This document shows positions 26,979-32,385 of a stretch of 64,000 nt of DNA, piece by piece. The stretch is from NCBI RefSeq assembly GCF_016820515.1, contig NZ_JADHDV010000004.1, forward strand, positions 124,001-188,000, read 5' to 3'. The first letter of the stretch is position 1. Each line of letters opens with the position of its first letter. The notes below the pieces were generated by a model, which was not told the DNA's origin, ran no database searches, and saw nothing but the letters and a program-made list of their open reading frames with translations. Made by a program: the position numbers and the translations under genes. This DNA is from Pseudoxanthomonas beigongshangi. Its GTDB lineage: Bacteria; Pseudomonadota; Gammaproteobacteria; Xanthomonadales; Xanthomonadaceae.

Positions 26979-29480
<2,502 letters not shown>

Positions 29481-29542: not shown

Positions 29543-30628
29543 TCAGACAGGGGACAGCCGGCCGTGTTCCACGTGGAACCGGGTTGGGTTGACGCCTATT
29601 TCCTCCAACGCGGCTGGAGGCTCGGTGCCGGTGATGAAGATCTGGGCACCACTGCCCAGCAGGCGTTCCAGCACGCGGCGTTGGTGTCCGCGGTCCAGTT
29701 CGGAAGCCAGGTCGTCCAGGGCGATCACCGGCCACTCGCCGCGCCGCGCCGCATAGTCCTCGGCCTGGGTGAGCAGGCAGGCCAGCGCGGTGAGCTTGGC
29801 CTGGCCGCGCGAAAGCGCTTCCCTGGCGGGGCAGGCGGCATAGTCCACCCGCCAGTCGGCGCGATGCGGCCCCACGGAGGTATGGCCGGCCGCGCGATCC
29901 CGGTCCCTGGCCAGCAGCAGGGCATCGGCCAGGGACAGTTCGTGTCGGCGCCAGCCGGGTTGGAACTCCAGGGTGGCCCGGCCCAGCCCGGGGACCAATT
30001 CGGCCGCCACCCGGCTCAGGCGAGGTTGCAGCTGCTCCAGATATCCGAGCCGCCGCTGGGTCAGCGGTTCACCGGATTCGGCCAGCTCATGGTCCCAGGC
30101 GTCCAGCTGGGCGCCGCCGATTCCGGATTTGAGCAGGGCATTGCGCTGCTTCAGGGCGCGGGCATAGCGGCGCCACAGTCCCAGGAAGTCCTGTTCCACG
30201 TGGAACAAGCCCCAATCGACGAAGCGCCGGCGGGGCTCCCCGCCCCCGGTGACCAGGGCATGGCTGCCAGGTTCGAAGCTCACCACGGCCAATGCCGCGC
30301 AAAGCTCGCCCAGCTGGCCGACCGTCTCGCCATCCAGCCGGCCGGTCCAGACCTGGCCGCTGTGGCGCAGGCCGGCGCGGCGCGGCCGGACGGCCGTGGC
30401 TTCCTCCCACTCCACGAAAATCTCGACCGCCTCGCTTCCCGTCCGTACCAACCCGTCCCGGACCCGGCCGCGAAAGCTCCGGCCATAGGCCATCACGTGC
30501 AACGCCTCCAGCAGGCTGGTCTTGCCCGCACCGTTGTCCCCGGTCACCAGGTTCAGGCCCGGGCCCGGCTGCAGGCTGGCCTGCTCGAACCGACGCAGCC
30601 CTGCCACCGTCAATCGGGTCACATGCAC
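29543..30628 (-). CDS. recF: DNA replication and repair protein RecF
   Basis: A 361-residue SMC-like ATPase that loads RecA at gaps with RecO and RecR. Walker A is LVTGDNGAGKTSLLEALHVM (near residue 30), the signature region is ALSRGQAKLTALACLL, and Walker B is WPVIALDDLASELD. The start is a GTG at 30628, because the Xanthomonas protein begins MHVxRL and this one VHVTRL. Two parS-like palindromes are written within the frame, at residues about 141-146 and 350-355; both encode FHVE. Confidence 0.95.
   Translation of the reverse strand: MHVTRLTVAGLRRFEQASLQPGPGLNLVTGDNGAGKTSLLEALHVMAYGRSFRGRVRDGLVRTGSEAVEIFVEWEEATAVRPRRAGLRHSGQVWTGRLDGETVGQLGELCAALAVVSFEPGSHALVTGGGEPRRRFVDWGLFHVEQDFLGLWRRYARALKQRNALLKSGIGGAQLDAWDHELAESGEPLTQRRLGYLEQLQPRLSRVAAELVPGLGRATLEFQPGWRRHELSLADALLLARDRDRAAGHTSVGPHRADWRVDYAACPAREALSRGQAKLTALACLLTQAEDYAARRGEWPVIALDDLASELDRGHQRRVLERLLGSGAQIFITGTEPPAALEEIGVNPTRFHVEHGRLSPV
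29565..29580. promoter_or_regulatory. parS-like site 1 (3' end of recF)
   Basis: TGTTCCACGTGGAACC: a 14-base palindrome of the parS class recognised by chromosomal ParB (consensus TGTTNCACGTGNAACA), with one end base changed. It lies inside recF, 22 bases before the stop. Confidence 0.8.
30192..30207. promoter_or_regulatory. parS-like site 2 (inside recF)
   Basis: TGTTCCACGTGGAACA: a perfect 16-base palindrome equal to the parS form used by Pseudomonas relatives. It lies in the middle of recF and encodes LFHVEQ. Confidence 0.85.
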
Positions 30629-30782
30629 AGGGACACCGCTCCGGCCGGACGGGGGCTGGAAACAGGGAACGAAAACCAGGAAGCCGCCGGTGTTGGCGGA
30701 AAGGTGCGGGAGGGCATGCAGGGATCTTACCGGGATCCGGCGCCCCCGATTCCGGGCGGATGCGCAATGGGCGGCCATCGCA

Positions 30783-31154
30783 TCAGGGCCAGACATGCGC
30801 GCTCCGGTTGAATCCACCTCGGTAGGGCTTGCCCACGCAGAAGCGGTGCCCACTGGGCGCCTGCATGACCACCCATTCGGCCTGCCGGCTGACCAGGACC
30901 GCCCCCAACTGTCCCAGCCGACGGACTTCCAGCGGGATCGAATCCGTCTCCAGGTCCAGATGGACGCGGGGGGCATGGCGGACCTGCTGGAGAATGACCC
31001 GCACGTCGTCCGCCGGCGTCCGCAGCCGGATGAAACGGCCTTCCCAATCCCCCGGCAGAGCCAGGCCGAGCGTGGCACTCCAGAACTCCGCCGCAGCTGG
31101 GAGATCGTCTGTCCGGCAATCGATGACGAGATTGCCAAGCCTGCTCCGGTGCAT
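30783..31154 (-). CDS. VOC-family protein inserted between dnaN and recF
   Basis: A 123-residue single VOC module: RLGNLVIDCRTDDLPAAAEFWSATLGLALPG at the start, HAPRVHLDLETDSIPLEVRRLGQLGA in the middle (with the histidine used for metal in this group) and FCVGKPYRGG near the end. It lies in the place where dnaN and recF are usually adjacent, after the dnaN terminator. It has no strong ribosome-binding site but normal codon use. It may be a recent insertion into the origin operon. Function is unknown. Confidence 0.8.
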   Translation of the reverse strand: MHRSRLGNLVIDCRTDDLPAAAEFWSATLGLALPGDWEGRFIRLRTPADDVRVILQQVRHAPRVHLDLETDSIPLEVRRLGQLGAVLVSRQAEWVVMQAPSGHRFCVGKPYRGGFNRSAHVWP

Positions 31155-31231
31155 GGTGGCCTCCGCTGGACTCTGGAATCGACACCGTAGCGCCCTGGGC
31201 TCCCAGGGAATGTCGACGGGACTCCACAACG

Positions 31232-31256
31232 AAAACGCCCGGCATCAAGCCGGGCG
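31232..31256 (-). terminator. Terminator after dnaN
   Basis: On the minus strand, CGCCCGGC pairs with GCCGGGCG around a five-base loop and is followed by TTTTCGTT. The stem is strong but the T run is short, so termination is likely partial. It lies between the parS site downstream of dnaN and the inserted VOC gene. Confidence 0.65.
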
Positions 31257-31263
31257 CTGTTCG

Positions 31264-31279
31264 TGTTCCACGTGAAACA
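31264..31279. promoter_or_regulatory. parS-like site 3 (just after dnaN)
   Basis: TGTTCCACGTGAAACA: 15 of 16 bases match the general parS consensus TGTTTCACGTGAAACA. It lies between the dnaN stop (31285) and its terminator. It is the closest of the three sites to oriC, about 1.1 kb away. Confidence 0.85.
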
Positions 31280-31284
31280 AGATG

Positions 31285-32385
31285 TCAGAGGCGCAGCGGC
31301 ATGACCACGTGGCGGGACTTCTCGCTGCTGGCTTCACGCACCAGGGCGGAGGAATTGGCGTCTCGCAGCTGGATGACGACCTGCTCGTCGCGCAGCGCGC
31401 TGAGCGCATCCAGCAGATAGTTGACGTTGAAGCCGATGGCCAGTCCGTCCACCTTGGTGTCGGCTTCGATTTCTTCCTGGGCTTCTTCCTGTTCCGGGTT
31501 GTGCGCGCTGATCTTCAGCTGGCCGGGCGAAACTTCCACCCGCACGCCGCGGTACTTTTCGTTGGACAGGATCGCCGCGCGTTGCAGCGCCGCGCGCAGG
31601 ACTTCGCGATCCAGCAGAACCTCGCGATCCGCGCCAATCGGAATCACCGCGGCATAGTCCGGAAAACGGCCATCGATCAGCTTGGACGTGAAGGTGACAT
31701 CGTCCCGCTTGACCCGGATGTGGCTGCGACCGACTTCCAGTTCCAGCGCCCGATCACCGCCTTCCAGCAGGCGCTGCAGCTCGGTCACGCCCTTGCGCGG
31801 CACGATGATCTGGCGCTTGGACAGCGGCGAGCCTTCCAGTTGCGCTTCGCACAGGGCCAGGCGATGGCCGTCGGTGGCCACGCAGCGCAGGGTGCGGTCG
31901 GCCAGGTCGAACAGCAGGCCGTTGAGGTAATAGCGCACGTCCTGCTGCGCCATCGCGAACGCGGTGCGCTCGATCAGTTCCTTCAGGGTCGCCTCTGGCA
32001 CGTCCACGCGCTCGGTCGCCTCGACTTCATCCACCGACGGGAAGTCGTTGGCGGGCAGGGTGGCAAGGGTGAAACGGCTGCGCCCGGCTTGCACGGTGAC
32101 CTTGTCCGCCGATTGGCTGACGGTGACCTTGCTGCCATCGGGCAGGGCACGCACGATTTCAAACAACTTGCGCGCGGGGATCGTGGTTTCGCCGTCCTGC
32201 GCGTCCTCGACCGCGCTGCGCGCAATCATTTCCACTTCCAGATCGGTGCCGGTCAGCGACAGCTGCCCGTTCTGCACCTGCACCAGGAAGTTCGCCAGGA
32301 CCGGCAGGGTCTGCCGCCGTTCGACCACATTGACCACCTGGGCCAACGGCTTGAGGAATGCTTCGCGCTGAAGGCTGAAACGCAT
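31285..32385 (-). CDS. dnaN: DNA polymerase III beta sliding clamp
   Basis: A 366-residue clamp that holds polymerase III on DNA. The three-domain structure is seen from MRFSLQREAFLKPLAQVVNVVERRQTLPVLANFLVQV, through VDVPEATLKELIERTAFAMAQQDVRYYLNGLLFDL, to the C-terminal VNYLLDALSALRDEQVVIQL and the final HVVMPLRL, which forms the peptide-binding cleft. Length is standard. It follows dnaA on the same strand across the candidate oriC. Confidence 0.97.
   Translation of the reverse strand: MRFSLQREAFLKPLAQVVNVVERRQTLPVLANFLVQVQNGQLSLTGTDLEVEMIARSAVEDAQDGETTIPARKLFEIVRALPDGSKVTVSQSADKVTVQAGRSRFTLATLPANDFPSVDEVEATERVDVPEATLKELIERTAFAMAQQDVRYYLNGLLFDLADRTLRCVATDGHRLALCEAQLEGSPLSKRQIIVPRKGVTELQRLLEGGDRALELEVGRSHIRVKRDDVTFTSKLIDGRFPDYAAVIPIGADREVLLDREVLRAALQRAAILSNEKYRGVRVEVSPGQLKISAHNPEQEEAQEEIEADTKVDGLAIGFNVNYLLDALSALRDEQVVIQLRDANSSALVREASSEKSRHVVMPLRL

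What the first reader, a model, noticed from the sequence alone, without database searches (positions are those of the whole stretch)
29565..31279. Three parS-like sites at the origin, two written into the recF coding sequence
TGTTCCACGTGGAACC (29565), TGTTCCACGTGGAACA (30192) and TGTTCCACGTGAAACA (31264) match the chromosomal parS palindrome. The first two encode FHVEH and FHVEQ in RecF. As I remember the Xanthomonas RecF sequence, it also has FHVE at both places, while E. coli, which has no ParABS, has different residues there. This suggests that ParB binding constrains a recF protein segment: a dual-coded centromere. Site 3 lies between the dnaN stop and its terminator.
Basis: partly seen in the sequence, partly recalled or inferred. 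Interest (0 to 1): 0.72.

Follow-up and report, generated by a model that had tools for sequence, protein, structure and literature searches.

The report
Centromere sites written inside recF gene
Two copies of the DNA sequence that marks the bacterial centromere sit inside a DNA-repair gene, and across a very large group of bacteria the gene's codons, and even some of its amino acids, appear to be dictated by that second job.

Summary
The three sites are real. They are the only parS-like sites with at most 1 mismatch in the 4.23 Mb assembly, which also encodes ParB and a ParA-like protein. Two lie in recF, on FHVE codons 140-143 and 349-352.

In 81 recF genes of the family, CAC, GTG and GAA are invariant at both sites wherever the residue is kept; background codon identity is 0.50. 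In 225 recF genes from 134 families of the class (mean RecF identity 33%), 193 of 219 ParB-positive genomes keep at least one exact core and 150 keep both. Seven site columns rank 1-7 of 234 for codon conservation.

DNA, not protein, is selected: 0 of 17 ParB-negative genomes in a second sample have a core; six genomes carry the same variant core at both sites, in one changing V to M at both; in two families the core sits in another frame, encoding STWN. In 150 of 195 genomes with a recF core, recF holds every core.

Known: P. aeruginosa parS1/parS2 lie in recF. I found no report of class-wide dual coding. ParB binding was not tested.

The parts
29565..29580 (.). parS-like site 1 (TGTTCCACGTGGAACC, 1 mismatch to the 16-mer, exact 14-bp core 29566-29579), in the 3' end of recF; on the minus strand it encodes FHVE, residues 349-352 of RecF (C-terminal beta strand in the predicted structure)
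30192..30207 (.). parS-like site 2 (TGTTCCACGTGGAACA, perfect palindrome, core 30193-30206), mid-recF; encodes FHVE, residues 140-143 (end of a helix and the following loop in the predicted structure)
31264..31279 (.). parS-like site 3 (TGTTCCACGTGAAACA), non-coding with respect to dnaN, between the dnaN stop and its terminator-like hairpin; a core (GTTYCACGTGRARC) lies within 3 kb 5' of recF in 80 of 80 loci of relatives
29543..30622 (-). recF, 359 aa from the GTG at 30622 (start codon not certain)
31285..32385 (-). dnaN, beta sliding clamp
31234..31258 (-). terminator-like hairpin downstream of dnaN
30783..31154 (-). small ORF with a Glyoxalase_6 (VOC-like) domain between dnaN and recF; not part of the centromere
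26979..29444 (-). gyrB, downstream neighbour of recF (named by eye from its translation, no family search)

Best explanation
The three sites are the chromosomal parS centromere of this bacterium: ParB loads at the palindromes (inferred), spreads on neighbouring DNA, and with ParA segregates the new origins. Two of the sites are dual-coded. The same 14 bp, GTTYCACGTGRAAC, must work as a ParB operator and be read as [codon ending in G]-TTY-CAC-GTG-RAA-[codon starting with C] in recF. Selection on ParB binding fixes the synonymous positions and also holds residues that RecF does not seem to need for itself (V142, H350, E/K143, E/K352, and the first base of the next codon). The arrangement is old: it is found in 118 of 134 sampled families of the class, appears to have been lost repeatedly, and is absent in all 17 ParB-negative genomes of one sampled order. 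Shown here: sequence, position, codon and residue constraint, link to ParB presence, concerted variants, frame-shifted relocations. Inferred: ParB binding and the role in segregation in this organism, by analogy with P. aeruginosa.
For: Only 3 sites with at most 1 mismatch in the assembly, all within 1.7 kb beside dnaN/recF; ParB and a ParA-like neighbour in the genome. 81 recF genes of the family: CAC 81/81 and 81/81, GTG 80/80 and 81/81, GAA 81/81 and 81/81 among genes with the residue. Class sample, 225 genomes: FHV[EK] at site 2 in 183, of which 178 use the three parS-compatible codons against 12.6 expected from own-gene codon use; site 1: 175, of which 168 against 12.5; preceding codon ends in G in 183/183 and 174/175 (81.1 and 106.0 expected given the residues), next codon starts with C in 183/183 and 175/175. 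E and K, opposite charges, alternate as the parS purine allows: 156/27 and 134/41. ParB-negative: 0 of 17 with a core against 60 of 83 ParB-positive in the order sample. Concerted variants: 7 genomes non-consensus at both sites, 6 of them with the same double-stranded core; G022, G162, G003 and G148 have no other match to the widened pattern, and these four plus G084 have no consensus core. Cores in another frame (STWN; f113, f101) or elsewhere in recF as FHVK or FHVE (f125, f164). 345 of 433 cores in the 225 genomes lie at the two recF sites. Literature, passages read: parS1/parS2 in P. aeruginosa recF, ParB binds them, silent mutation weakens binding, parS2 as the only intact site gives wild-type segregation (PMC5521831, PMC3909081, PMC4368675).
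Against: No binding data for this organism. 26 of 219 ParB-positive class genomes have no exact core at either site, and 23 of 83 in the order sample. Two of 6 ParB-negative class genomes with recF keep one core (G114, G200); ParB may be missed there, or decay may be recent. Seven genomes carry a variant at one site and consensus at the other, and G144 has a variant in recF but a consensus core elsewhere. FHVE persists at site 1 with a core broken by a silent change in ParB-positive genomes, e.g. all 6 of f176, so part of the motif can survive without an exact parS. Genomes are related; Fisher tests are not corrected for phylogeny. A ParB alignment showed no obvious specificity residue for the variants.
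Confidence: 0.93

Rival explanations
1. FHVE is a RecF protein motif conserved for RecF function; the palindrome is a by-product of a repeated amino-acid motif and codon bias.
For: F140, F349, G354 and an aliphatic residue at 351 tend to stay in genomes without the core; FHVE survives at site 1 with a silent mismatch in f176 and others.
Against: Synonymous codons are fixed far beyond own-gene codon use (178 against 12.6; 168 against 12.5); the base before the motif is fixed while its residue varies; the core occurs in another frame encoding STWN; V142 and H350 are among the least conserved positions once the core is lost; an intergenic copy of the same palindrome exists.
Confidence: 0.03
2. 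The palindromes are operators for another DNA-binding protein that regulates the dnaA-dnaN-recF-gyrB cluster, not centromere sites.
For: ParB excess lowers expression of genes of this cluster in P. aeruginosa (PMC5521831, passages), so an operator-like effect at these sites exists.
Against: Sequence equals the ParB consensus; absent in 17 of 17 ParB-negative genomes of the order sample; in P. aeruginosa the recF sites are bound by ParB, and one of four oriC-proximal sites, parS2 included, is enough for segregation (PMC4368675, passages).
Confidence: 0.03
3. parS function is real, but the recF address is a frozen accident: the sites were inherited in recF and are merely hard to move, so location carries no function.
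For: Phylogenetic spread looks like inheritance with repeated loss (rough). Cores sit just 3' of the recF ORF in several genomes, so the exact gene is not essential.
Against: Cores occur within recF at new positions or frames in f113, f101, f125 and f164, and genomes with one recF core more often have a core elsewhere (25 of 45) than those with two (20 of 150; not corrected for phylogeny), which suggests selection for a pair.
Confidence: 0.45

Closest known systems
parS1 and parS2 of Pseudomonas aeruginosa (within recF)
   Same: Same 16-mers (TGTTCCACGTGGAACC and TGTTCCACGTGGAACA), same gene, near oriC; bound by ParB; silent mutants were made without changing the protein (PMC3909081, PMC4368675, PMC5521831; passages read).
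   Different: P. aeruginosa has ten putative parS; here only three sites exist, and 150 of 195 sampled class genomes with a recF core have no core elsewhere. The passages read do not mention conservation across families or dual coding. I did not see the exact positions within P. aeruginosa recF in any call.
parS of Xanthomonas citri at the 3' end of dnaN
   Same: Corresponds in place to site 3: the paper gives TGTTCCACGTGGAACG at the 3' end of dnaN (PMC3937727, passages).
   Different: The passages name 'at least one' site and do not mention recF; the Xanthomonas recF genes fetched here carry both recF cores.
Chromosomal parS near oriC in general (survey by Livny et al. 2007, not held, not seen)
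   Same: Consensus, palindrome, oriC-proximal clustering, cognate ParAB.
   Different: Sites are placed at two fixed codon positions of one gene across families.

Membership tests
chromosomal parS site | 16-bp palindrome close to TGTTNCACGTGNAACA | tested here: met
   1, 0 and 0 mismatches
chromosomal parS site | clustered near oriC | tested here: met
   all three within 1.7 kb beside dnaN and recF, next to dnaA (named by eye); none elsewhere with at most 1 mismatch
chromosomal parS site | cognate ParA and ParB encoded in the genome | tested here: met
   ParB over the TIGR00180 cut-off; adjacent upstream ORF with a KGGVGKTT Walker motif read as ParA by eye, no family search
chromosomal parS site | site present with ParB, lost without it | tested here: met
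   order sample: 60 of 83 ParB-positive against 0 of 17 ParB-negative; class sample: 193 of 219 against 2 of 6. The association is strong, not perfect
chromosomal parS site | ParB binds and nucleates there | not testable with these tools
   no ChIP or binding data for this organism
orthologue of P. aeruginosa parS1/parS2 | same codon positions within recF | not tested
   papers place both in recF; exact positions not seen; FHVE in P. aeruginosa RecF is recalled only
dual-coding element (DNA site constraining a protein-coding sequence) | synonymous positions under constraint | tested here: met
dual-coding element (DNA site constraining a protein-coding sequence) | amino acids held beyond protein need | tested here: met
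   V142, H350 drift where the core is lost; E/K swap; V to M at both sites with a variant core in G022. The core-intact group is defined by the DNA, so only the lost group is informative
dual-coding element (DNA site constraining a protein-coding sequence) | DNA kept independent of reading frame | tested here: met
   STWN frame in f113 (2 genomes, one of them, G113, without a ParB hit) and f101 (1 genome)

The most novel reading that the evidence does not exclude
In most sampled genomes of this bacterial class the whole chromosomal centromere is a conserved pair of parS sites about 620 bp apart inside recF, and the address itself is selected: when one member is lost another tends to arise in or beside recF, so recF is a dedicated host of the centromere, perhaps coupling ParB loading to replication or expression of dnaA-dnaN-recF-gyrB.
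Probability: 0.3. Interest if true: 0.82.

Novelty: new variant of a known kind. Interest (0 to 1): 0.68.

Why it matters
parS in recF was known as a feature of P. aeruginosa. Here it appears as a class-wide, long-lived overlap of a centromere and a protein gene, with the DNA code dictating amino acids of a repair protein. It gives a clean natural experiment on dual coding (two sites, many losses, variants, frame shifts) and a warning: residues conserved in RecF alignments, such as parts of FHVE, need not be functional in RecF. It also raises a testable question: why the centromere stays in recF, and whether spacing or distance from oriC is selected.

Tried and rejected
Chance: rejected. Protein-only conservation: rejected. 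ParB specificity residues explaining the variant cores: ParB proteins of 24 genomes and of G000 were aligned; no obvious determinant by eye, left open. Phylogenetic counting used a FastTree tree with midpoint root; 27 losses and 9 gains of site 2, and 30 and 12 of site 1, are rough, and some gains may be tree error (shuffled labels: mean 97 and 83 steps against 36 and 42). Outgroups of the class were seen only as PDB chains: the RecF sequences aligned (entries 5z67 and 8a8j and their near-duplicates) have other residues at site 2. Ten literature searches gave no report of class-wide conservation or dual coding in the listings; the library lacks most subscription journals, so this is weak evidence of absence.

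Rows dropped: one search asked for 300 class genomes and searched 276; 240 matched. Of these, 14 had only weak matches (E above 1e-12, taken as not RecF; two of them, G093 and G178, searched again without a match at that limit) and one (G081, match at a contig end) was not fetched, leaving 225, G000 included. Order sample: 100 of 101 matched genomes (G122 is in the class sample instead); G222 is in both samples and counted once (324 genomes). The four unlisted ParB-negative genomes (G361, G369, G371, G377) were found by elimination. ParB status is a TIGR00180 hit at E at most 1e-20 and includes plasmid-type ParB: G350, G366 and G380 are counted as ParB-positive although their hits look plasmid-borne or weak, which works against my reading. 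In the family set one record is titled Bacillus subtilis and one Lysobacterales bacterium; both were kept. One search pattern (FVDWGLFH) overlaps site 2. In one search the best columns outside the sites are mostly serines, whose two codon families inflate the measure.

Full report
OBSERVATION. The three palindromes are at the stated coordinates. The exact 14-bp core GTTYCACGTGRAAC occurs three times in the window, 0.0004 expected from base composition. Genome-wide only these three have at most one mismatch to TGTTNCACGTGNAACA. The genome encodes ParB, with a ParA-like ORF directly upstream and an RsmG-like ORF before it (named by eye). Sites 1 and 2 lie in recF (29543-30622, minus strand) and encode FHVE at residues 349-352 and 140-143 of a 359-residue RecF. 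Site 3 lies between the dnaN stop and a terminator-like hairpin.

FAMILY LEVEL. Named relatives (80 loci, by title mostly Pseudoxanthomonas, Stenotrophomonas, Xanthomonas and Lysobacter) plus the window give 81 recF genes. The His, Val and Glu codons are CAC, GTG and GAA at both sites in every gene that has the residue (one gene has Gly for V142); mean pairwise codon identity of the other columns is 0.50, and these six codons are the only ones at 1.0 among 290 columns. The Phe codon, where parS tolerates C or T, does vary a little (TTT in 1 and 3 of 81). A core lies within 3 kb 5' of recF in 80 of 80 loci (pattern with one extra degenerate base; not checked to be between dnaN and recF in each). 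One search pattern covered part of site 2, a possible small bias; the class sample below does not depend on it.

CLASS LEVEL. A sample drawn evenly from the class gave 276 genomes; 225 recF genes from 134 families were read. Mean pairwise RecF identity is 33% over 3000 drawn pairs. Of 219 ParB-positive genomes, 150 have the exact core at both sites, 43 at one and 26 at none; 118 of 134 families have at least one core and 92 have both in some genome. Where the protein reads FHV[EK], the codons fit parS in 178 of 183 (site 2) and 168 of 175 (site 1) against 12.6 and 12.5 expected from each gene's own codon use. The codon before ends in G in 183 of 183 and 174 of 175 although its residue varies (81.1 and 106.0 expected), and the codon after always starts with C. 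In a scan of 234 RecF columns, seven site columns rank 1 to 7 for synonymous conservation, also with one genome per family; the next best columns are serines.

WHOLE CENTROMERE IN ONE GENE. The 225 genomes hold 433 exact cores; 345 are at the two recF sites. Of 195 genomes with at least one recF core, 150 have no other exact core. The two cores are a median 621 bp apart. Genomes with one recF core more often have a core elsewhere (25 of 45) than those with two (20 of 150), Fisher p 3e-8 without phylogenetic correction; several such extra cores sit 4 to 18 bases beyond the last sense codon of recF.

THE DNA IS WHAT IS SELECTED. (a) ParB: in a second sample, the order around a ParB-negative genome (100 recF genes), 0 of 17 ParB-negative and 60 of 83 ParB-positive genomes have a core. 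(b) Concerted variants: among 189 ParB-positive genomes of both samples with both sites recognisable, 175 are consensus at both, 7 at neither and 7 at only one; 6 of the 7 double variants share the same double-stranded core at both sites. G022 has CACATG at both sites, which turns V to M in RecF at both; G162 has the same element the other way round, silent in RecF; G084 has CATATG at both; G148 has CACGTA at both; G003 has one element in opposite orientations at its two sites. These five genomes have no consensus core anywhere. Mixed cases exist: G050 and G008 have one variant and one consensus site, and G144 a variant in recF and a consensus core elsewhere. (c) Frame and place: in two genomes of f113 a core lies eight codons further on than site 2 in another frame and encodes STWN (one of the two, G113, has no ParB hit); in f101 a core at the C-terminus is in that frame; in f125 and f164 cores occur elsewhere in recF as FHVK or FHVE.

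PROTEIN CONSEQUENCE. In the 106 and 73 genomes where site 2 or site 1 is lost (two or more mismatches), V142 and H350 are at the 9th and 8th percentile of column conservation, E143 and E352 at the 25th and 21st, while F140 stays at the 91st, F349 at the 75th, V351 (V, L or I) at the 59th and G354 at the 86th. Many one-mismatch cores (11 of 15, 20 of 24) still encode FHV[EK], as expected if decay starts at silent positions. In the structure prediction (61 sequences, mean pLDDT 95.8), site 2 covers the end of helix 128-142 and the next loop, and site 1 the C-terminal strand 347-352.

KNOWN WORK. Passages read: P. aeruginosa parS1/parS2 lie in recF (PMC5521831; PMC3909081); its parS mutants were made silently, binding fell, and a strain with parS2 as the only intact site had wild-type phenotypes (PMC4368675); X. 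citri parS at the 3' end of dnaN (PMC3937727). A term search of PMC7022226, a review, finds recF 0 times. PMC5815017 (one passage) reports that a hot spot for parS insertions in Caulobacter covers recF and gyrB. So the element is a parS by sequence, place and partner, its presence in recF has a precedent, and the class-wide dual coding is, as far as these searches show, unreported.

LIMITS. No binding experiment; genomes unnamed and partly draft; ParB calls include plasmid types; tests uncorrected for phylogeny; two of 6 ParB-negative class genomes keep one core, and 26 of 219 and 23 of 83 ParB-positive ones have no exact core at either site. Membership of the sampled group in Gammaproteobacteria (GTDB sense) is inferred from the named relatives.

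Noticed in passing
G071:C1:2783-2834, G274:C1:2776-2814, G139:C11:275342-275391, G237:C21:96316-96385, G126:C8:115423-115479: Five genomes without a convincing RecF match carry a tight pair of parS cores 25-56 bp apart; in G071 and G274, single-contig genomes, the pair is about 2.8 kb from the contig start, where recF begins in G115. Possibly the pair outlived the gene; not checked.
   Followed up: no
L245 (G037), L287 (G164), L175, L235, L301, L212, L244 just 3' of recF: parS cores lie 4 to 13 bases beyond the last sense codon of recF, in G037 and G164 with site 1 lost, as if the site had slipped out of the gene.
   Followed up: partly
window 30783-31154 (-): A small glyoxalase-like ORF (Glyoxalase_6) sits between dnaN and recF in this genome.
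   Followed up: no
G155 (L277) and G249 (L299), f25: Two about 1 Mb genomes without a ParB hit keep degraded cores (one or two mismatches), while G025 of the same family has ParB and intact cores: apparent decay after ParB loss.
   Followed up: partly
G100 (12 cores) and G241 (8 cores): Two genomes in the class sample have unusually many exact parS cores.
   Followed up: no
L061: A record titled Bacillus subtilis carries a Stenotrophomonas-like recF locus, probably contamination or mislabelling.
   Followed up: no
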